64,000 nucleotides of DNA. Source: Ctena decussata (Eukaryota; Mollusca; Bivalvia; Lucinida; Lucinidae). Positions within the stretch are counted from its first letter, which is position 1, and each line of letters starts with the position of its first letter. The stretch spans positions 79,783,903-79,847,902 of the forward strand of contig OZ022499.1 in assembly GCA_963989385.1 (NCBI GenBank), in the 5' to 3' direction. The notes under the pieces are model-generated. The model had not been told where the DNA came from. It worked only from the letters and a program-made list of their open reading frames with translations, and did not search any database. Shown here piece after piece: positions 42,591-61,985 of this stretch. A program made the position numbers and the translations under genes.

Positions 42591-42720
42591 CAGCAATCTT
42601 ACATTTTATGAGGCATAGTCACGTCTATAATAAATTTGAGCGGATTGGACTTAAAAGCTAGGAAGGATGTGATTTTGAACATAAAATTCCAGAGTAAACA
42701 GAACATAAAATACAGGAAAT

Positions 42721-42957
42721 GAGCCGCAACACGACAAAACCAACAAAGTGGCATATGCGCCCAGCGAAGGCTCAGATAGGCCTTGGCATCCATCCAGTAT
42801 GATCTGAGTCTTTGCTTGCGCTTTAAAGGTAGCTAAGGGTCTAAGCTAGCTATAAGCGGACTGCGAAGAATCTGATCAGACTGGGCGGATGCCCAGGCTG
42901 ATCTGAGTCTTAGCTGGGCACACATACCACTTTGTTGGTTTTGTCGTGTCGCGGCTC
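42721..42957. mobile_element. GAGCCGCG fold-back MITE, copy e
   Basis: Ends GAGCCGCAACACGAC and GTCGTGTCGCGGCTC. AAAT flanks both sides (42717-42720 and 42958-42961), consistent with a 4-bp target duplication. Confidence 0.9.
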
Positions 42958-42961
42958 AAAT

Positions 42962-46056: not shown

Positions 46057-46165
46057 TAGTAGTAAGGACAGACACTTTGGCCCCGTTTTTTTCCCATGTA
46101 TTTTTACATAGACTTTTGGCCTGAAAAAAAAAACTAAGTCTGCAGGGTCGCCTAGTGTAAAAATA

Positions 46166-47752
46166 GCAATCAGAGGAGATGGCAAATCCCCCGACCGAAG
46201 ACCCCCATGGGCCTTGGTAAAAAGGGTGCACTTCAAAACACATATTAGTAATATATTGTCGTTCTTTTATGCTTCTGATTGACATTAACTGTTAACAAAC
46301 GCATGATTATCTAACACTCAGACTAAAACAGTATGCTTGACTGCTAAAAAGAGGTAATATCTCAAACAGCCACCATATACACAAATGTATAGCATACGAT
46401 ACATTCAACTTTCAAAATGTGTGAATAACTTCTAAAGTACAAGCCCTACAAACCTAATTTTGAGCTCTCTAGTAATGAATTTGGACAAAGAATCCAAATC
46501 TGGAAAAAAAAATATTTTTTTTTTTTTTTTTTTTTTTGGGGGGGGGGGGGGAGGGGGGGGTGCGGGTGGGGCACGGGAATGTGGAGGGGTAAGAGAGAGT
46601 TAGGAACACTGATAAGATATCACAGCATGATCATCAATATTCTAAAAGGTTCACGGTTATTCAAATTCTGGAGCTGGCCAGGGTTATACAGTTATGGAGC
46701 AGAGACTCAAACTGCAGCTCAAACTACCAAAGGGAAATAATTCACTAGGTCTAAAAGCAAGAGTTATCATTCATGCATGAGACAAATTGTCATGACCTGT
46801 TCTGCATATCAGTAAAGTATCATGAAAATATTTCAAAAGGTATTCAAGCTATGTATGGAATAGACACTTAAAATCATCAAAGGAAAAATAACTCCAAAAG
46901 TAAGAAAGCAAGAGTTGTCATTCTTGTTTGCGACACATCATCATGACCTGTTCTACATATCTGTGAAGTATCATGAAAATATTCCAAAAGATATTCAAGT
47001 TATAGAGCGGACACGAAATCACATCTAAAACCATCAAGGGGTAATAACTCAAAAAGTAAGAAAGCAGGAATTGTCTTTCTTGTTCGCGACACATCGTCAT
47101 GACCTGTTCTATATATCTGTGAAGTATCATGAAAATATTCCAAAAGGTATTCAAGTTATAGAGCGGGCACGAAATCATACCTAAAATGATCAAGGGGAAA
47201 TAACTCAAAAAGTAAGAAAGCAAGAGTTGTCATTATTGTTCGCGACACACCGTCATGACCTGTTCTACATATCTGTGAAGTATCATGAGAATATTCCAAA
47301 GGGTATTCTAGTTATAGAGCGGACACGAATCTGCCAAAAAATCACACCTAAAACTATCAAGGGGAAATAACTCAAAAAGTAAGAAACCAAGAGTTGTCAT
47401 TCTTGTTCGCGACACATCGTCATGACCTGTTCTACACTTCTGTGAAGTATCATGAAAATATTCCAAAGGGTATTCAAGTTACAGAGCGGACACGAATCTG
47501 CCAAAAAATCACCAAAGGGGAAATAATTCAAGAAGTACAATAGCAAGAGTTACCATTCTTGTACGCGACACATCGTCATGACCTGTTCTACATAACTGTG
47601 AAGTATCATGAAAATATTCAAAAGGGTATTCAAGATATAGAGCGGACAAGAAAGTGTTTACGGACGGACGGACGGACAGACGGACGGACGGACGGACGGA
47701 CGAACGGACGCCAGGCTCATCGCTATATCCCCCGAACCTTTCGGTCGGGGGA
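46166..47752 (+). mobile_element. Tandem-core element inserted in the left arm
   Basis: Flanked by perfect 8-bp duplications TAAAAATA (46158-46165 and 47753-47760); removing it restores the arm sequence seen uninterrupted at 61140-61200. Six ~155-165 bp units with CATGACCTGTTCTACATATC and AATAACTCAAAAAGTAAGAA, an ACGG microsatellite at 47660-47709, and a 13-bp subterminal inverted pair TCCCCCGACCGAA (46187) and TTCGGTCGGGGGA (47740). T/G homopolymers at 46515-46551. No protein. Confidence 0.9.
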
Positions 47753-47985
47753 TAAAAATACATGGCCGGGCCAAAGATGTCAATCCATGAGTTAACTTCC
47801 TCAGGCTAGGAAGTCTCTGTTAGGCCCTTTTAAAGCCGTAGAAGTCAAGTTCCTAGGCATTCAGAGCTGTTCTTAGGACGATTCAGCGCCATTTTCCCAC
47901 AAGAAATAGCCGTGGGATCATGCACGCAACTTTGCGGGACGTTGTAGGAAGTTTGTAGGATCTGTAGGAGCACACAAGAAAACTT

Positions 47986-48110
47986 GCGGGATCACGCGAC
48001 GTCTTTGGCCAGTTGTGACGTTATGTTATAGGAAGTCTGTAGGAACTGTAGGATCCCTCAAGAATTCTTTGCGGGATCACGCGACGTCTTTGGCCAGTTG
48101 TGACGTTAGG
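47986..48110. repeat. Direct repeat inside the left arm
   Basis: GCGGGATCACGCGACGTCTT and GGCCAGTTGTGACGTTA occur twice, ~86 bp apart, and are mirrored in the right arm at 60790-60945. Confidence 0.85.
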
Positions 48111-48224
48111 TTTGTACGTTTATGACGTCAGTTATTTCTAGCCGAAGTATACAAGACGTTGGCCTCCATAGAAGCTGCGCTTATCATATTTTTAAGGGAA
48201 AATAGCAACATCCACACATCCACA

Positions 48225-48510
48225 CTGAAATTCTGGAGTTAATGTGGATGATGTGGATTTGATGTTGATGTTTTGTGGCTGATGTGGATCCACAATGTGG
48301 AGTTTCCACACGTCCACATCTACACATTTGACAGTGTGGATGATGTGGATTTGATGTGGATGTTTTGTGGATGTTGTGTGGAGTTTATGTGGATGATGTG
48401 GGTGTTTTGTGGATGTTGTGTGGAGCTTATGTGGATGATGTGGATTTGATGTGGATGTTTTGTGGCTGATGTGGATCCACAATGTGGATATTTCCACATG
48501 TCCACATCTA
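48225..48510. repeat. GTGGATG minisatellite, left arm
   Basis: Irregular units built from GTGGATGTTTTGTGGATG, TTTGATGTGGATG and GTGTGGAGTTTATGTGGATG, ending at CCACAATGTGGAT. The right arm has the same array at 52815-52980 and 60601-60705 with fewer units. The long minus-strand frame of His/Pro/Ser/Thr residues across it is a by-product. Confidence 0.85.
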
Positions 48511-48736
48511 CACATTCGACAAATTCGCTTAGTCTCTGCTGTCCCTTGTTCTAGCTTATTTCTCAAGTATGCTGACAGACTTCTGGAAATCTCTGTGAGA
48601 AACAGTGACCCAACGGCTTTCTCATTATGCCCTAAACAGTAGCATGCCCCTCAGAGGCATGGCCATGCAGTGTTCTTATACTGTACAGTAACAGGTGAAG
48701 ATAAAGAAGCCTGTCTACAGGGTTCCTAAATATTTG

Positions 48737-48824: not shown

Positions 48825-49667
48825 ATGAAGGACTTCTATCTGACTCTTCTTAGTGACAGTTCGATGAATACTTTTCCAAAGAACACACAGAGTTCTTTTA
48901 CTGTCAGACTAGATCATCCCATCAAGATGGATAAGGACAACTGGGAAGTTGCTTTAGTGGAAATGATTACGCCATCTGAAGTCATGAACATTTCAGAGAA
49001 CAATAACTTTTTCTTTTTAACATTTCTAGACCAGGCGACAGTTAATAATCTGGGAATACAGAGCGCGAATGAACTGTGTGCTGGCGGAGAAGGATGTTAT
49101 GAATATAAATTGTTTATCCCAGAAGGAAATTATAGCTCTCCTCAGCATTTGGTGGATGAGATCCAGTCTGTAATAGATACACAGCATGGACCTTTATTGA
49201 CCAAAATAAATGCTTCTATTCAAATTACTTATGTAAAAAGCAGCAAGCGTCTCAAAGTCATTGCGCAGAATTCAAAGCAGGTCAGGGTTCGTTTTCCAGC
49301 TTCTCTTGGGGAAGCTCTTGGAGTAAATCCGAGCATGTCAGAAAGACCTATTGCAAACGAAAGCCATGCTTTCAAATATCAAGTGGACTTGAATATGATG
49401 CACAGTCGGTTGTACGTGTACTCTGATGTTGCCAGTTACACTTACGTAGGAGACGTGACTGCGCCTATTTTGAGAGTCGTACCATTCGAAACGTCAAAAG
49501 CCTCACAACAGTCACACAAAGAATTCGTCAATATGCATTACGTTCCTGTAGCCAAATCCTTCATCGATCAAATTCATATCAGTATCAGAGGTGATACGGG
49601 AAAAGATATTCGTTTCAGCCATGGAAAGACTTTGATAAAGTTACATTTCAGACTGAGGGTTGTTTAA
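48825..49667 (+). CDS. Penton/minor-capsid-like protein of a Polinton-type element
   Basis: An intact 280-residue ORF from ATG at 48825 to TAA. The N-terminus has F-Y-L-T-L (4-8), S-S-M (12-14), a F-P-x-N turn and W-E-V-A-L-V-E-M (40-47); the C-terminus has H-Y-V-P-V, G-D-T-G-K-D-I (256-262), a G-K-T-L-I-K-L-H-F-R strand. This start (F-Y-V-T-L, Y/F-P-x-N-T, W-E-V-G-L-x-E-I) and end (D-T-G-x-x-I-x-F, G-K-x-x-x-x-L-H-F-R) are the pattern I know from penton-base-like proteins of Polinton/Maverick and adintovirus-like elements, which form capsid vertices. Own TATA box upstream. Residues 1-206 lie in the inverted arm and are present a second time at 51813-52499. No stop codons or frameshifts, so it is recent or under selection. 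Family assignment is by pattern, not search. Confidence 0.7.
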   Translation: MKDFYLTLLSDSSMNTFPKNTQSSFTVRLDHPIKMDKDNWEVALVEMITPSEVMNISENNNFFFLTFLDQATVNNLGIQSANELCAGGEGCYEYKLFIPEGNYSSPQHLVDEIQSVIDTQHGPLLTKINASIQITYVKSSKRLKVIAQNSKQVRVRFPASLGEALGVNPSMSERPIANESHAFKYQVDLNMMHSRLYVYSDVASYTYVGDVTAPILRVVPFETSKASQQSHKEFVNMHYVPVAKSFIDQIHISIRGDTGKDIRFSHGKTLIKLHFRLRVV

Positions 49668-49703
49668 TTTCTGACTAAATATCGGTATGAATATCGAAAT
49701 AAG

Positions 49704-49711
49704 TATAAATA
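49704..49711 (+). promoter_or_regulatory. TATA box of the small basic gene
   Basis: TATAAATA, 54 bp before the ATG at 49765 and 37 bp after the stop of the preceding gene. Confidence 0.55.
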
Positions 49712-49764
49712 CAAGATGATGCTACAAAATTCATCATTTTAAGTTAAGCTTGATAGAAGACAAA

Positions 49765-50151
49765 ATGAATTGTTCAAAGCAGACGAAAGAAGATTTAAAG
49801 AAGCCATCAGATTCATCAGGTGCGCCTGTCGTCCAGAAAAGAAGCTACCAGGCGAGCTACGGACAGATTCGATACCTCATGAAAAGACTTGCAACTGCTT
49901 TAGACAAAAGACTCAGAGAGGGTAGACCATCAAAGTAGTGTCGACTCTGCAAAGCTGAAATTCACTCCTTCTTACGTGAGGAGAAAGAAAAGCAACATAG
50001 ACGCAAGCTTAAAGAACAAAAGGAGGGTCGAGATATTAGACGTTCCCGCAGGTCTTTGACGAAAGCTAGAACTAAGAAAGTTCGTGCAGATGACAGTTCC
50101 GATGAATCTAAAGACTTCCGTAAACAAGTAGGATGCAAGCGAGAGAAATAA
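49765..50151 (+). pseudogene. Small basic protein gene broken by an amber codon
   Basis: An ATG at 49765 opens a frame of 57 codons ending at TAG (49936-49938). The same frame then stays open for 70 more codons to TAA at 50149-50151, so a single-base change probably created the stop. The first part is mixed, with Q-I-R-Y-L-M-K-R-L; the second begins C-R-L-C and is extremely rich in Lys, Arg and Glu, probably a long charged helix. I recognise no family; a nucleic-acid-binding core or packaging role is a guess from charge and position between two element genes. The stop could be a real inactivation, a sequencing error or a read-through site. It has its own TATA box. Confidence 0.5.
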
Positions 50152-50376
50152 AATGTAAGTTACTGCTATCAAGTAATTGATAAAAGGTCAGAAGATAATG
50201 TAACTTAATCATCATAACTGTTGGTGTAAGTGATAAATCATTTTATTCTCTTATCTATATATTTAAACTCACAAGTTTAAAATAACATTTTTTTTTGAGA
50301 ATTCTGTTTCTAATCTTGACATATGAACGTATATCACATGAACCCATTTACTGTATTTTTTTTGCAGGCAAAAACC

Positions 50377-50384
50377 TATAAAAG
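50377..50384 (+). promoter_or_regulatory. TATA box of the zinc-finger gene
   Basis: TATAAAAG, 43 bp before the ATG at 50428. It makes that ATG the likely start, rather than the in-frame ATG at 50323 that lies upstream of the box. Confidence 0.55.
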
Positions 50385-50427
50385 GAGTACTTCATATGCC
50401 ACTTGTTCATTCTTCAAGCAACATTCG

Positions 50428-51183
50428 ATGGGTCGATATCAGTGCCAGACGTGTTTTCGTGAATTTGCTCGATCGGACAGCTTAAGAAGACATATATCCA
50501 GTGGCGTTTGTAAAGGGAAGTCTGCAGTGTCTGACAGTGAAGAAAGTATTGTATCAGAGTCGTCTGACATACATACTGAGAATAAACATATGCAGGGTAT
50601 GAAAGGACATGATATCTTTGGAAAATATAATTATACTAAACCTTCACGAGACTCCGATACAGACGCAGCAGAGATGGACACGGACAATGAGTCTCCCGGC
50701 GATGAGGAGATGGGTAAAATCAAACCCAGAAAAACGTCAAAGAAAAGTCCTTGGGATAGACTCTTAAGACGAACCTACGAAGCCGTTCAAGATCAGTTTA
50801 ACGACACGGTGGAAAATACGTTGCAGGAAGAACCCGATGTGGACATAGAAGAAGCAGAAGAGATAGCATATGAAGAACTCAAACCAACATATAGATCATG
50901 CTTTATTTCTAAATATCAAGATCTTGTGAGACTCGGCTCTGCTTTGAGAAAAGATCCTATTCACAAGAAAGTATTATCTACTGCCCACAAACTAAAAGAA
51001 GATGAAGACTATGACGATGAAGAAGCAATGCAATATGCAGTTAAAAAGCGTCGTTATCTACTTGGGAGGAAACTTGACGAATATCAAAGACCAACTGCTA
51101 CTGTAGAAGAGGAACGTCAACATACACTGATACCTGTTAGATCGCAAACATTACAGATAAAAACTAATATGTCAAAGAAATGA
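50428..51183 (+). CDS. Zinc-finger protein of the virus-like element
   Basis: 251 residues if started at 50428 (286 from the upstream ATG at 50323, less likely given the TATA box between them). Residues 4-28 are a single classical-type finger with ligands C6, C9, H22 and C28 (C2HC rather than C2H2). An acidic stretch (D-S-D-T-D-A-A-E-M-D-T-D) and a basic patch (K-P-R-K-T-S-K-K) follow, then a helical C-terminal domain with E-E-A-E-E-I-A-Y-E-E-L, Y-R-x-x-F-I-S-K-Y, R-K-D-P-I-H-K-K and Y-A-V-K-K-R-R-Y-L-L. Proteins with one N-terminal finger and this kind of C-terminal domain are repeated in invertebrate genomes next to Polinton-like genes, in my recollection. It may bind element DNA or be a core protein; function unproven. 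Intact; poly(A) signal AATAAA at 51334-51339. Confidence 0.6.
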   Translation: MGRYQCQTCFREFARSDSLRRHISSGVCKGKSAVSDSEESIVSESSDIHTENKHMQGMKGHDIFGKYNYTKPSRDSDTDAAEMDTDNESPGDEEMGKIKPRKTSKKSPWDRLLRRTYEAVQDQFNDTVENTLQEEPDVDIEEAEEIAYEELKPTYRSCFISKYQDLVRLGSALRKDPIHKKVLSTAHKLKEDEDYDDEEAMQYAVKKRRYLLGRKLDEYQRPTATVEEERQHTLIPVRSQTLQIKTNMSKK

Positions 51184-51333
51184 GACTTTTGTAGCACAAT
51201 ACTTGAATCAGTAGTAGAACAGTATACAATTTCCTGTTTTCTTCGTTTGTTTTATTGTATTGATATGAATGTTGTAAACGAGGGCAGAGGGACGGTCCTA
51301 ATCCTCTGTTCATCGTCATCAGTTAGCGGGACA

Positions 51334-51339
51334 AATAAA
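51334..51339 (+). terminator. Polyadenylation signal after the zinc-finger gene
   Basis: AATAAA 151 bp after the stop codon. Confidence 0.5.
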
Positions 51340-51394
51340 GTTGTGTTGAGTTAAACAAGTTGTCTGTTCTTCTTTCGAAATGTAGTAGTAAGTT

Positions 51395-51790
51395 AACAAG
51401 GGCTAGTTGTCGGGCACTGTAGAGTCACGCCTCTGCTAGGGCAAGAGTCATACAACAGAGGCCTGTTGCTATACAGGGCCATATGCGGATGCTGTAGAGT
51501 CACGTCTCTGTTACGGTGAGGTCATATGAGACCGAGAGTCTGCTAACAGACACCTGCTACTGTACAGTATAAGGGCACTGCATGGCCATGCCTCTGAGGG
51601 GCATGCTACTGTGTAGAGCATATAAGAATACTGTAAAGTCACGTCTCTGGTACAGTGAGGTCTTATGAGGCCGAAAGTCTGATATCAGAAACCTGCTGCT
51701 ATACAGTATCAAGGCACTGCAGAGCTATATGCCTCAGTTAGACTAATAACAGGGGCAAGTAACTTTGTAGAGCATATAGTTTTGAGCCCC
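51395..51790. repeat. Diverged direct repeats between zinc-finger gene and inner terminus
   Basis: CTGTAGAGTCACGTCTCTG-like words at about 51417, 51490 and 51632; CCTGCTACTGTACAGTATAA-like words at about 51552 and 51697. Part (51552-51612: ACTGCATGGCCATGCCTCTG, GGGGCATGCTACTGT) matches the arm sequence just upstream of the capsid-like gene (complement of 48637-48700, same strand as 52622-52690). Confidence 0.7.
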
Positions 51791-51794
51791 GAGG

Positions 51795-51881
51795 CTCACT
51801 AGCCTGAGGAAGTTAAATCATGGATTGACATCTTTGGCCCCGGCCATGTATTTTTACACTAGGCGACCGGGCGGACACGTT
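51795..51881 (+). repeat. Extra copy of the element's right terminus
   Basis: ACTAGCCTGAGGAAGTTAA, CATGGATTGACATCTTTGG, GGCCATGTATTTTTACACTA and GGCGACC match 61109-61190 in the same orientation (and the complement of the left end at 47753-47815). It abuts the truncated gene copy directly, so it marks a rearrangement junction. Confidence 0.85.
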
Positions 51882-52499
51882 AGTGTAACTGGCAACATCA
51901 GAGTACACGTACAACCGACTGTGCATCATATTCAAGTCCACTTGATATTTGAAAGCATGGCTTTCGTTTGCAATAGGTCTTTCTGACATGCTCGGATTTA
52001 CTCCAAGAGCTTCCCCAAGAGAAGCTGGAAAACGAACCCTGACCTGCTTTGAATTCTGCGCAATGACTTTGAGACGCTTGCTGCTTTTTACATAAGTAAT
52101 TTGAATAGAAGCATTTATTTTGGTCAATAAAGGTCCATGCTGTGTATCTATTACCGACTGGATCTCATCCACCAAATGCTGAGGAGAGCTATAATTTCCT
52201 TCTGGGATAAACAATTTATATTCATAACATCCTTCTCCGCCAGCACACAGTTCATTCGCGCTCTGTATTCCCAGATTATTAACTGTCGCCTGGTCTAGAA
52301 ATGTTAAAAAGAAAAAGTTATTGTTCTCTGAAATGTTCATGACTTCAGATGGCGTAATCATTTCCACTAAAGCAACTTCCCAGTTGTCCTTATCCATCTT
52401 GATGGGATGATCTAGTCTGACAGTAAAAGAACTCTGTGTGTTCTTTGGAAAAGTATTCATCGAACTGTCTCTAAGAAGAGTCAGATAGAAGTCCTTCAT
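51813..52499 (-). pseudogene. Truncated inverted copy of the capsid-like gene
   Basis: Minus-strand ORF starting at 52499. Residues 1-206 equal the gene at 48825 except at one site I saw (Ser10 to Arg); at the DNA level at least two substitutions occur over ~615 bp. After the junction (~51882) the frame runs for 22 residues into the extra terminus copy and stops, so the last quarter, including the G-D-T-G-K-D-I motif, is missing. TATA box retained at 52580-52587. A translated product would lack a strand-rich end, so I treat it as non-functional. Confidence 0.8.
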
Positions 52500-53110
52500 A
52501 CTTAATTAATTAATCCACTGTCTCTCAAGAATCTCAGTCAAGTTCTGAATAACTATACACGATCCTGTCAAAGACCTGCTATTTATACAAATATTTAGGA
52601 ACCCTGTAGACAGGCTTCTTTATCTTCACCTGTTACTGTACAGTATAAGAACACTGCATGGTCATGCCTCTGAGGGGCATGCTACTGTTTAGGGCATAAT
52701 GAGAAAGCCGTTGGGTCACTGTTTCTCACAGAGATTTCCAGAAGTCTGTCAGCATACTTGAGAAATAAGCTAGAACAAGGGACAGCAGAGACTAAGCGAA
52801 TTTGTCGAATGTGTAGATGTGGACATGTGGAAATATCCACATTGTGGATCCACATCAGCCACAAAACATCCACATCAAATCCACATCATCCACATAAGCT
52901 CCACACAACATCCACAAAACATCCACACCATCCACATAAACTCCACACAACATCCACATCAAATCCACATCATCCATACTGTCAAATGTGTACACTGGCG
53001 CTCACGTATTTGTACACCAAAAACGCGTTTGTACCGCGTTGCATGCGCGTGCTGCGTGCGTATCACCTAGAACCGCGCATCAGACGCGTCTAGACGCGCC
53101 CTGACGCGTC

Positions 53111-53619: not shown

Positions 53620-54030
53620 TTCCTGCAGAGACTGTACATCATATTTGGCTTCCGCCGAGACTGTCCGCGAGTTCTTGCTTCCTGCCGAGACTTCTGTACA
53701 TGATAAATAGCTTCCTGCAGAGACTGTCCGTGTGATTTTGCTTCCTGTCGAGCCTCTCGGCAGGAAGCAGAGTCACGTGGACAGTCTCGGCAGGAAGCCA
53801 ATTATCATGTACAGAAGTCTCTGCAGGAAGCAAGAACTCGCGGACAGTCTCGGCGGACTTCACATATTTGACTTCCGCCGAGACTGTCCGCGAGCTCTTG
53901 CTTCCTGCAGAGACTTCTGTCTTCGAAAATTGGCTTCCTACCGAGACTGTCCACGTGACTCTGCTTCCTGCCGAGATCCTCGGCAGGAAGCAGAATCACT
54001 CGGACAGTCTCTGCAGGAAGGTTGGTGGTA
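53620..54030. repeat. Two adjacent hairpins of GCTTCCTGCCGAGACTGTCC units
   Basis: Hairpin 1 has arms 53620-53754 and 53757-53862; hairpin 2 has arms 53864-53976 and 53980-54021. The ~30-45 bp unit alternates GCTTCCTGC and GACTGTCCGCGAG words; the complement GCAGGAAGC fills the right arms. Each hairpin centre is a CTCGGCAGGAAGC-type inversion point. Confidence 0.85.
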
Positions 54031-54617: not shown

Positions 54618-55780
54618 TCATTTGTAGCATGTAGTTTTGGCTGAAGGCAGAATAGTAACGTACATTCCAAGATAAACCTCGATTTCCAGAAAGCAATTTA
54701 ATGCTGCAAAAATTTTCAGCATATGGGGCCAGAGATGAATGATCATCAAGGTGACTGAAAACCGAGAACCCCGGCAAGAAAAAACACCTGACTCTCTACA
54801 AGAAGAACTTGGTTTTCTAACCGAAGTTAGACCCAAGCTGTAACAAGCCCCCCCTGTCCTGGCTAGGTCCAAGGCAGTTCTATGGAGAAAAAAAGGGGGA
54901 GGAGGAGGGAACAAGGAGCAAATTCTTGGATGGGATGCAAATTCTTTAATGGGGAGGGGGGCGGGTGCAAAAGACTGCCCAGTTTCATGTGTTAGTGGGG
55001 TTGCACCGAAGTGGACCTGTGCTGGGTCCTGGGCAGGTGACGTCTCAGAAAAAGGGAGAAGCAAAATCTTTGGTGGGGTGCAAAAACTTCCAGAAACATT
55101 AAGTAGCAATGGATTAGAACCCAAATGGACTTGTGCACAGATCCACATAAATCACTTCCCATGCACTTAGCCCTCGCGACCCACTGTGGGTTGGCTTTAG
55201 CAATACAATACAGGGCTTCTGGAAACGCATGGCATGAGAGGTACACTTCAAGCCATAATGCATCTTCCTCGAACTGCTGGCCTCCATCAGACTTCACTTT
55301 GCTAGTTCTGCCGGAACAAGCCCCCTGTCCTGGCTGGGCCCAGGGCAGGTCTAGGGGGGAAATGGGGAGCAAATTCTTAGGTGGGGAGCAAATTCCCTTA
55401 TTAACTAATGCAATGGGCAGTGGGGGATAAGAGATTGAGGGTGATCTGGAATGCAGTTGTCTCATGTTTTTGTGGCCCTCATGAGTAATTGAGACTGCCT
55501 GGGTTACATCATGAATTGCGACCGTTGGTCTCAGAGAAGACCGTAGCTTAAATCTGTTGGGAGGGAGGTAGGTGGGGTAAAAATTCCTTTTGGGACCTAG
55601 GACTGTAGCATTTGTTATAAACCTTATCTTGGTTTAGTTGGTTCCAAAATATATTGCATATTTAAAGTTTTAGGGTCCTGTATTTTCATGGGAGTTTATT
55701 TTTAGTGTTCTAATATTTTGGGAAATGGAGAATATTATTAGTCAACAACAGGACTGTAGCTAATTTCTTATTGTGGATTG
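54618..55780. repeat. Diverged ~470-bp duplication
   Basis: 54844-54960 and 55312-55395 share ACAAGCCCCC, TGTCCTGGCT, GGCAG and GGAGCAAATTCTT. Long frames on both strands here are rich in low-complexity residues and match nothing known to me. Confidence 0.5.
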
Positions 55781-56710
55781 TTGGGAGGAGAGAGCAGTTT
55801 CTTTTTGCTGTTTCTAGGGAGCAAATGTGATGAACCTTATAATGATCCAGTTGCTTTCCAGGTAACTAAGCCTGGGTATGAGATTAAGGAGGTTGGATAC
55901 ACATTATTTTTTGAGGGGAAATGGAGAATATTATTAATAGACACGGGGACAGCAGCTTATTTCTTATTGCGGGTTGTTCAAAAAGGATGGCGGTTTCTTT
56001 TGGCTGTTTCTAGGGAGCAAATGAGTTGAACCTTATAATGGTTTATTTAGTTTCCAGGTAACTAAGCCTGGGTAGGAGATTAAGGAGGTTGGATACACAT
56101 TATTTTTTGGAGGGGAAATGAAAAATATGATTAATAGACACGGGGACAGTAGCTTATTTCTTATTGCGGGTTGTTCAAACAGGACGGCAGTTTCTTTTGG
56201 CTGTTTCTAGGGAGCAAATGAGTTGAACCTTATAATGGTTTATTTAGTTTCCAGGTAACTAGGCCTGGGTATGAGATTAAGGAGCTTTGATACACATTAT
56301 TTTTTGGAGGGGAAATGGAGAATATTATTAATAGACACGAGGACAGTAGCTTATTTCTTATTGCGGGTTGTTCAAACAGGACGGCAGTTTCTTTTGGCTG
56401 TTTCTAGGGAGCAAATGAGTTGAACCTTATAATGGTTTATTTAGTTTCCAGGTAACTAAGCCTGGGTGTGAGATTAAGGAGGTTGGATACACATTAATTT
56501 GGGGGTGGGGAAGAAATGGAGAGTATTATTAATGGACCAGAGGACTATAGCTTATTTCTTATTGCGGATTGACGGGAAAAGAGGGCAGTTGCTTTTGGCT
56601 GTTTCTAGGGAGCAAATGTGCTGAACCTTATTATGGTTCATTTAGTTTCCAGGTAACTTAGCCTGGGTGTGAGGTTAAGGAGGTTGGATACACATTAATT
56701 TTAGCCTTTA
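55725..56710. repeat. ~197-bp tandem repeat, five units
   Basis: GGCTGTTTCTAGGGAGCAAA recurs at about 55809, 56004, 56201, 56399 and 56598; each unit also has TTCCAGGTAACTAAGCCTGG and GGAGGTTGGATACACATTA. Confidence 0.9.
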
Positions 56711-56949
56711 TTGTCAATAGACAAAAGTCATTTATACGACCGTAGGGAAAGTCAGATTGAAGTCGTACAGATGGGTTCTGGGGCTTTTACTGGGTAATGG
56801 GAGTTTTTGTCATGAGCATTGCACTTGTTAGGGTATTAATGTGGATCCAGGGATTTTGGGAAATGGGTTTGATAGGTGGTTAGCAACAGGGGCTCGAATT
56901 AGAGAAAATTAGGGGGATTTTTTTCTTTATTGTATTGGAATCTATCTAT
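56711..56949. other. Unassigned, before the hAT-like element
   Basis: It may be the 3' non-coding end of the LINE whose coding part is at 58599-59985 (minus strand), because the hAT-like element is inserted between them. Confidence 0.4.
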
Positions 56950-60310: not shown

Positions 60311-61263
60311 GACCTCACTAAAATGCGCATTCAATACGCGATTTTGATTGGTTCCCGTACGCGCGCGTTGAAACGCAAAGGACTACGCCACTACCCGTAT
60401 CATGTGCGCAATTTTGATTGGGTCCATGAAATTTGCATAAAATGCGCGTTGCACGCGTCGCTTCGCGGTATACGCAAAACTGAGAACGAATTTTCATTGG
60501 CTACTAAAATATTCGCGTCCATAATTACCGCGTATTCCGCGCGCATCAACTGCGTCCCCGACGCGTTTTGAATGTGTACAAATACGTGAGCGCCAGTGTA
60601 GATGTGGACGTGTGGAAACTCCGCATTGTGGATCCACATCAGCCACAAAACATCCACATCAAATTCACATCATCGACATTAACTCCACAATTTCAGCGTG
60701 GATGGGTGGATGTGGCTATTTTCCCTTAAAAATATGATAAGCGCAGCTTCTATGGAGGCCAACGTCTTGTACACTTCGGCTAGAAATAACTGACGTCATA
60801 AACGTACAAACCTAACGTCACAACTGGCCAAAGACGTCGCGTGATCCCGCAAAGAACTCTTGTGGGATCCTAAAGTTCCTACAGACTTCCTATAACATAA
60901 CGTCACAACTGGCCAAAGACGTCGCGTGATCCCGCAAGTTTTCTTGTGTGCTCCTACAGATCCTACAAACTTCCTACAACGTCCCGCAAAGTTGCGTGCA
61001 TGATCCCACGGCTATTTCTTGTGGGAAAATGGCGCTGAATCGTCCTAAGAACAGCTCTGAGAGCCTAGGAACTTGACTTCTACGGCTTTAAAAGGGCCTA
61101 ACAGAGACTTACTAGCCTGAGGAAGTTAACTCATGGATTGACATCTTTGGCCCGGCCATGTATTTTTACACTAGGCGACCCTGCGGACTTAGTTTTTTTC
61201 AGGCCAAAAGTCTATGTAAAAATACATGGGAAAAAACGGGGCCAAAGTGTCTGTCCTTACATC

Positions 61264-61985
61264 TCCCAATTATTTCATTTCAAGACGAAGAGTATGAAGA
61301 ATAAGCCCAGAGTTGAGTATAAAGTGTACTGGATTGCCTTTACATGTGCCTTTGGGACGATTCGTAAATGCACAAATATCAAATCTTCTGGTAGCCTGCA
61401 AGATACCCGGGCCTGCTAGTCAACCGGACAATTGCAATGTTACAATTCTAGTCGGCATACAAATGAAGAATGAACATGTTAAGCATTTGAAGGAACTGAA
61501 AAGAAATTGAGTGTGTACATGTAAATGTGTGGGCCTAGGGCAACCGGGTACACTTTCAGGGGAAGCATCTCGGCAATCCTACCTTTCAAATGGGACTAAA
61601 CTCTTTAAGGAAAGCATTTGCTCCTTTGGGAGCAAAGTTGAAGAGTCTCCCAGTTCAGGAAAACTAACAGGAAATTAATAAAGTTGTGTATTGATAATAA
61701 GTCTACGATAATTTGTGCCAGTTATCCATGAAAACGTGTTGTGGCTGTATATAGAATCGCCAAGACTACTCTAATGTGAGGCAACATCAGTCATTTTAAT
61801 AGAGAAATAGGAAAACACCATCTGAATTATTAGTAAATGTTTTTGTTGTTTGTTTATATGTGACTGCATAACCGAAAGGGTCCGTAATTGGAGAAATAAA
61901 CGTTCTATTCTATCCTATTATTTTATGTAGATCTACCCGTGCACCTGCAGATTTAGATTTGTAAATGTTGCACCCCCTCCCCCCT
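61264..61985. other. Unassigned, possible LINE tail
   Basis: 61540-61680 shares ACACTTTCAGGGGAAGCA and a few other words with 10950-11100. GAAATAAACGTTCTATTCTATCCTATT at 61893-61920 (given as position, reads as a 3' tail) may be a LINE end. No gene. Confidence 0.4.

What the first reader, a model, noticed from the sequence alone, without database searches (positions are those of the whole stretch)
48825..51339. Compact virus-like gene cassette: penton-like, small basic and zinc-finger proteins
Three same-strand genes within 2.5 kb, the outer two intact, inside long inverted arms. The first shows the start and end motifs I know from Polinton/adintovirus penton (minor capsid) proteins. A capsid-vertex gene carried without polymerase, integrase, ATPase or major capsid would be an unusual, possibly satellite-like or non-autonomous member that depends on another element.
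Basis: partly seen in the sequence, partly recalled or inferred. Interest (0 to 1): 0.88.

Follow-up and report, generated by a model that had tools for sequence, protein, structure and literature searches.

The report
Polinton satellite carrying its own penton
The cassette is one damaged copy of a small, many-copy mobile element in an animal (probably clam) genome that has the ends of a virus-like Polinton but carries a capsid-corner gene, a small basic gene and a zinc-finger gene instead of replication genes, so it most likely lives as a satellite of Polintons in the same genome and may put its own corner protein on their capsids.

Summary
The 280-aa protein has a penton fold. The window holds one damaged copy of a family of 4.7-5.9 kb elements with long inverted repeats, (AGT)2 termini and 6-bp target duplications (18 of 19 perfect): the Maverick/Polinton signature. 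All 20 copies fetched hold penton and zinc-finger genes; ORF lists of 19 show no polymerase, integrase or hexon. Subfamilies A (the window's) and B share their ends with two different, apparently intact Polintons in the same genome (11 of 11 and 10 of 10 copies). Satellite and helper pentons differ: the jelly-roll core groups with the helpers' (94/92), while the outer insertion domain ('crown', residues 61-160) separates satellites from helpers (70 sites to 0) and groups with other pentons. Zinc finger and penton show purifying selection. Best explanation: a satellite replicated, integrated and probably packaged by Polinton helpers, supplying its own vertex protein; dependence and packaging are inferred. 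Against: satellite B's core is no closer to its own helper than to the other, and the core tree does not reject an alternative (AU p 0.07). No paper seen describes a penton-carrying Polinton satellite.

The parts
46058..46165 (+). Left terminus and outer part of the left terminal inverted repeat
   Evidence: Exact terminus motif; 91.7% identical over 108 nt to the L009 terminus
46166..47752 (.). About 1.6 kb later insertion inside the left repeat, with a 156-bp tandem repeat, followed by a second copy of the direct repeat TAAAAATA
   Evidence: Splits a stretch that is continuous in L009 and L016; tandem repeat; flanks read
47753..48697 (+). Inner part of the left terminal inverted repeat
   Evidence: W -1072..-128 is 96.1% identical to the inverted right repeat of L009
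48825..49667 (+). Satellite penton, 280 aa, open
   Evidence: AF2 model pLDDT 91; penton matches
49005..49304 (+). Codons 61-160 of the penton: insertion ('crown') domain that separates satellites from helpers
49765..49938 (+). Small basic gene, broken in this copy by an in-frame TAG; the frame is open again to 50151
   Evidence: full-length (128, 136 or 139 aa) in 15 of 21 copies
50428..51183 (+). C2H2 zinc-finger protein with acidic linker and C-terminal helical domain, 251 aa, open
   Evidence: Pfam zf-C2H2 E 0.00094 but under the curated cut-off; 23 homologues; model
51272..51876 (+). Helper-A-like terminal region (right repeat, shortened)
   Evidence: 97.4% identical over 605 nt to L044 5852-6456
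51877..52992 (-). Truncated inverted second copy (inner left repeat plus the 5' three quarters of the penton gene)
   Evidence: 96.3% identical to L009 622..-489; minus-strand ORF 52499..51813

Best explanation
It is a copy of a satellite of Polinton/adintovirus-type elements. SHOWN: a compact element with Polinton ends and 6-bp target duplications; three genes (penton, small basic, zinc finger) and no ORF of the size and kind of a polymerase, integrase or hexon; two subfamilies, each sharing its ends with a different, apparently intact Polinton in the same genome; a penton whose crown differs consistently from the helpers'; purifying selection on penton and zinc finger. INFERRED: helper polymerase replicates the satellite from the shared ends, helper integrase inserts it, helper hexon shells package it, and the satellite penton, whose core is nearest to the helpers', occupies some or all vertices and so changes what the particle binds or favours satellite genomes. 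The zinc-finger protein is probably a DNA-binding regulator and the basic protein a DNA-condensing partner (weakest steps).
For: Penton fold; gene order around a distant relative. Structure of 20 copies; target duplication 18 of 19 perfect. Terminus motif 312+309 in the genome, 0+0 for the reversed pattern. Helper pieces L041-L044; in helper A Pfam rve, Chromo and Peptidase_C5; polB, 5.6-6.1 kb from the helper penton in the 11 cases measured. End match by subfamily 11 of 11 and 10 of 10. Satellite B (L022) shares 1.14 kb at 91.8% with the stretch upstream of helper B's polB. Crown sites 70:0, cross 1; crown tree rejects satellites+helpers, AU p 0.011; core tree unites them, 94/92. Penton dN/dS satA-satB 0.16; zinc finger pN/pS 0.11 and 0.105. 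A MAG labelled as a bacterial symbiont holds penton P0005 and basic P0154 with neighbouring locus tags.
Against: No expression, particle or transposition data. The 20 copies fetched are among the best penton scorers, so within-family penton pN/pS is biased low. The basic gene is weakly constrained (pN/pS 0.58 in A) and shortened or not found in 6 of 21 copies; the zinc finger is shortened or split in 3 of 21. A core closest to the satellite's own helper is seen in A only: satellite B's core is 75/70% identical to helper B and 77/77% to helper A. Residues 191-280 also lean to satellite-versus-helper (12 sites to 3), so part of the crown pattern could be faster evolution on one tree rather than exchange. 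The core tree does not reject satellites with the other crown lineages (AU p 0.07), and groups were named after the first trees were seen. Hexon is assigned by size, order and 26% identity to L039's ORF; no Pfam or PDB hit. Four kb of helper B's polB region and helper A outside C2:118003000-118009600 were not read, apart from the short polB loci that came; a packaging ATPase was not looked for.
Confidence: 0.82

Rival explanations
1. Interference: the satellite penton is a decoy that poisons or diverts helper capsid assembly, so the element acts as an anti-Polinton system kept by satellite or host.
For: Core near the helpers' with a different crown, which would suit mixed, defective vertices; satellites persist beside more than 100 helper-class penton matches.
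Against: The element multiplies with helper-type ends, which a pure inhibitor would not need; helper pentons remain numerous and many are 99-100% alike. Not excluded, and compatible with the satellite reading.
Confidence: 0.2
2. Ordinary deletion derivatives: internal deletions of Polintons whose leftover genes hitch-hike without function.
For: Non-autonomous derivatives are common among transposons (recalled); terminus pairs only 72 bp to 4.1 kb apart exist here too; several copies have a broken basic gene.
Against: The satellite penton is 61-68% identical to its own helper's while the ends are about 92-99%; zinc-finger and basic proteins gave no match below E 0.4 in the helper pieces read; the trio is kept in both subfamilies; dN/dS between them is 0.16; relatives occur in other assemblies.
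Confidence: 0.08
3. Second genome segment: satellite and helper are two parts of one bipartite virus that needs both.
For: Matching ends per subfamily and high copy numbers of both.
Against: The helpers seem to have their own open penton, integrase, hexon-like, protease and polB frames.
Confidence: 0.06
4. Host-domesticated capsid gene array rather than a mobile element.
For: Capsid genes have been domesticated in other cases (recalled).
Against: Copies dispersed over many chromosomes with target duplications and terminal repeats.
Confidence: 0.01

Closest known systems
Polinton/Maverick elements
   Same: 5'-(AGT)2//(ACT)2-3' ends and 6-bp target duplication (PMC8097293, passages seen); penton gene (PMC4028283, passages seen)
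   Different: About 5-6 kb instead of 16-20 kb; no polB, integrase or hexon ORF seen; own zinc finger; crown-divergent penton
Adintoviruses / MELD viruses
   Same: Helper A has an rve+chromo integrase, a Peptidase_C5 protein and polB; zinc-finger 'Ziftr' genes are reported in some adintoviruses and a clam adomavirus, and genomes with adenovirus-class virion genes but no recognisable PolB or integrase are mentioned (PMC11071296, sections 14 and 16 read)
   Different: The satellite has only the penton of that virion set; homology to Ziftr was not tested
Virophages (mavirus, Sputnik)
   Same: Penton of the same fold; dependent and able to integrate (recalled)
   Different: Virophages carry their own major capsid protein and depend on giant viruses (recalled); here the presumed helper is a Polinton and no hexon ORF was seen
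Capsid-remodelling phage satellites (P4, PICIs; recalled, my one paper search on them failed)
   Same: Small element that exploits a helper and encodes a protein directed at the helper's capsid
   Different: Animal genome, Polinton helper, a whole penton; packaging not shown
Non-autonomous DNA transposons (MITEs; recalled)
   Same: Mobilised in trans through shared ends
   Different: Keeps three genes, two of them under purifying selection

Membership tests
Polinton/Maverick (autonomous) | 6-bp target site duplication | tested here: met
   18 of 19 perfect, one with a single mismatch; a 20th copy has its left end masked
Polinton/Maverick (autonomous) | (AGT)2//(ACT)2 termini in inverted repeats | tested here: met
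   feature from PMC8097293
Polinton/Maverick (autonomous) | Protein-primed DNA polymerase B and rve integrase | tested here: not met
   No ORF of that size in the lists of 19 elements; no listed polB inside 18 short terminus pairs. The elements were not scanned with profiles
Polinton/Maverick (autonomous) | Major capsid protein | tested here: not met
   No hexon-sized ORF; the largest besides the penton is the zinc finger
Penton (single jelly-roll vertex protein) | Penton fold | tested here: met
Adintovirus-type Polinton (helper A) | polB; rve integrase with chromodomain; adenain-type protease | tested here: met
   PF03175 at C2:117999435; rve 48.1 bits, Chromo 28.0, Peptidase_C5 22.5 against cut-off 21.3
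Adintovirus-type Polinton (helper A) | Hexon recognisable as adintovirus hexon | tested here: inconclusive
   430-aa ORF in the right place, 26% to the L039 ORF; no Pfam or PDB hit
Adintovirus-type Polinton (helper A) | OTU-like domain at the polB N-terminus | not tested
   -
Virophage | Own major capsid protein | tested here: not met
   No hexon-sized ORF
Satellite virus | Multiplication depends on a helper | not testable with these tools
   Inferred from missing genes and shared ends
Capsid-remodelling satellite | Satellite protein built into the helper capsid | not testable with these tools
   Suggested by the core/crown pattern

The most novel reading that the evidence does not exclude
A satellite-helper virus system fixed in an animal genome: Polinton satellites make a chimeric penton with a helper-type core and a satellite-specific outer crown, replace helper vertices with it, and so travel in helper capsids with another receptor preference, in two co-evolving satellite-helper pairs.
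Probability: 0.42. Interest if true: 0.95.

Novelty: new variant of a known kind. Interest (0 to 1): 0.87.

Why it matters
Maverick particles had not been observed when PMC8097293 appeared in 2021 (start of its abstract). A parasite that keeps a penton under purifying selection, with a core near its helpers', is evolutionary evidence that Polinton capsids are built and matter. It would also extend capsid-directed satellites, known from phages and from protist virophages (recalled), to animal genomes, with helper and satellite side by side and in number, so that dependence and packaging become directly testable.

Tried and rejected
Host gene: rejected (dispersed copies with target duplications). 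The inverted arms as the element's own ends: rejected. Viral contig scans with the penton confirmed no relative; the GTDB scan gave two distant ones. Pfam and PHROGs name no penton family for the protein; PDB sequence searches gave nothing significant for it or for the hexon-like ORF. The zinc-finger protein's model has no PDB match at E 0.001.

Literature: searches (listings), passages, two sections. The phrases 'nonautonomous/non-autonomous Polinton' and '...Maverick' occur in no held paper (its 3 hits hold 'Polinton-derived'). PMC4028283 mentions and disputes an earlier suggestion that Tlr elements are non-autonomous Polinton derivatives, so the idea of such derivatives is not new; a penton-carrying satellite I did not see. 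Most subscription journals are not held, Repbase was not available, and I did not look for Starrett 2021 by name.

Full report
WHAT IS THERE. The window lies in an unnamed 1.66-Gb genome. The host is probably a bivalve (inference): the nearest named relative of the penton comes from a MAG labelled Candidatus Thiodiazotropha, recalled as a symbiont of lucinid clams and presumably holding some host DNA.

THE ELEMENT. In the same genome the search scored 138 of 641 penton candidates: 28 at 85% identity or more (group A, with the window copy; 5 have internal stops) and 110 at 77-78% (group B; 1 has a stop). I fetched 10 kb around 20 of these, ten per group, from the top rows plus one inverted pair. 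All 20 also match the zinc-finger protein, in two pieces in L025, L027 and L028. Among the 19 copies with both ends readable, group A measures 4.7-5.2 kb and group B 5.6-5.9 kb, apart from L028, an 8.5-kb inverted dimer. The longest aligned stretch between the two ends of one copy is 0.56-1.3 kb (more in L028). Ends read AGTAGTAA...TTACTACT and the 6-bp duplication is perfect in 18 of 19. In vertebrate Mavericks the commonest ends are (AGT)2//(ACT)2, with 6-bp duplications (PMC8097293, passages). In L016 the repeat reaches 162 nt into the penton gene, as end-to-end copying would give (inference).

WINDOW COPY. The left terminus is at 46058. A 1.6-kb insertion lies at 46166-47752. The right repeat is shortened and joined to a truncated inverted second copy; no right terminus was found. 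This copy is structurally broken.

HELPERS. The terminus pattern occurs 312 times forward and 309 reverse, 0 and 0 for the reversed pattern. I used 100 listed rows (C1 to part of C3). They give 40 convergent pairs, 20 rows staying single: 18 pairs of 4.6-6.5 kb, 13 of 15-20 kb, 9 others. Of the 18, 12 hold a listed satellite penton, 8 a listed zinc finger, 16 at least one, none a listed helper penton; of the 13, 12 hold a listed helper penton, 3 a listed polB, none a listed satellite gene; of the 9, 2 hold a satellite penton. The gene lists are capped, so absences are absences from the lists. PolB (PF03175) gives 160 matches, more than one per gene, many in open frames over 1,000 aa. Helper B (C16, about 18.6 kb between termini, AACTTT on both sides) has a 1368-aa polB frame and penton, pX-like, hexon-sized and integrase-sized ORFs. 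Helper A (C2, 16.4 kb between termini, 1321-aa polB frame) has an rve+chromo integrase, penton, pX-like ORF, hexon-like ORF (26% to L039's) and a Peptidase_C5 protein. A search with the helper B penton gives 125 rows at 81-100% identity (one place split in two rows; 4 rows with stops) and then a gap down to 14 satellites at 65-66% (138 of 623 candidates scored).

PAIRING. Group A copies (11 of 11, window included) match the helper A end at 91.6-97.4% (over 162 to 605 nt) and helper B ends only in stretches of 36-85 nt; group B copies (10 of 10) match helper B ends at 94.0-98.8% over about 500 nt and helper A's only in 84-108 nt. Satellite B also shares 1.14 kb at 91.8% (L022) or 90.9% (L024) with the stretch upstream of helper B's polB. 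Zinc-finger and basic proteins gave no match below E 0.4 in the helper pieces read.

MOSAIC PENTON. Identity in residues 1-60, 61-190, 191-280: satellite A to helper A 83, 51-52, 80%; satellite B to helper B 75, 49, 70% (to helper A 77, 46, 77%); satellite A to satellite B 78, 75, 81%; helper A to helper B 82, 85, 82%. Sites fixed within each satellite group: in residues 61-160, 70 separate satellites from helpers, none pairs each satellite with its own helper, one crosses; in 1-60 the counts are 4, 6, 0 and in 191-280 they are 12, 3, 2; core against 61-190, Fisher p 5.5e-4. In trees of 40 rows (homologues up to P0041 of at least 270 aa, with satellites and helpers; four rows dropped) the core places satellites with helpers A and B, P0007 and P0008 (94/92), while the crown places satellites with P0006, P0014, P0015, P0018, P0020 and others (96/91) and rejects satellites+helpers (AU p 0.011); the core does not reject satellites with those others (AU p 0.07). 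Groups were named after the first trees were seen, and the crown tree has long branches. Synonymous distance of satellite A to helper A in residues 1-60 is 0.31-0.41, against 1.02 to satellite B: a hint of core exchange, seen in A and not in B.

SELECTION. Penton pN/pS is 0.075 (A) and 0.154 (B), biased because copies were ranked by penton score; zinc finger 0.112 and 0.105 (10 of 11 and 7 of 10 copies used); basic 0.58 and 0.28 (8 of 11 and 6 of 10). Between satellites A and B the penton has dN 0.129 and dS 0.79.

OTHER HOSTS. In a 73-row tree satellite pentons form one clade (100/100) with P0001-P0005, P0009, P0011, P0025 and P0035; MAG proteins P0001, P0005 and P0042 fall in the satellite A, satellite B and helper parts. 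P0005 and the basic protein P0154 carry neighbouring locus tags and the same longest-contig length. So the satellite lineages probably predate this host (inference).

ZINC FINGER. One N-terminal C2H2 finger (Pfam under its cut-off), acidic disorder, and a confident helical part 108-217 without a PDB match at E 0.001 (model from 23 rows, 22 of the 23 homologues used). 'Ziftr' genes are reported in a clam adomavirus and some adintoviruses (PMC11071296, section 14); homology is untested.

VERDICT. A satellite of Polintons is well supported; vertex replacement is the best reading of the mosaic penton but unproven.

Noticed in passing
46166-47752: Insertion of about 1.6 kb in the left repeat with a 156-bp tandem repeat and an ACGG run; TAAAAATA stands on both sides.
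   Followed up: partly
61247-61264: A second terminus-like match on the minus strand with 2 mismatches.
   Followed up: no
55711-56713: Five tandem copies of a roughly 197-bp unit.
   Followed up: no
53641-54020 and 42720-42958: Close inverted repeats with arms of 112-155 nt, 80-90% complementary, possibly foldback elements.
   Followed up: no
L028 (G000:C8:21567000-21576999): Inverted dimer of a group B satellite with both ends and a target duplication.
   Followed up: partly
L039, L040: Penton relatives on contigs labelled Planctomycetota and Rhodospirillales MAGs; L039 looks like a misbinned Polinton-type virus.
   Followed up: partly
P0001, P0005, P0042, P0154: Probable animal DNA annotated as proteins of a bacterial symbiont MAG.
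   Followed up: no
G000:C1:86230479 and C3:19041420: Terminus pairs spanning only 72 and 78 bp: almost completely deleted elements.
   Followed up: no
P0008 / P0151: A helper-clade penton and a satellite-type basic protein share the longest-contig length 2,418, which may mean a satellite with a helper-type crown, or chance.
   Followed up: no
G000 genome: 160 polB matches (more than one per gene), mostly in open frames: a large set of apparently intact Polintons.
   Followed up: partly
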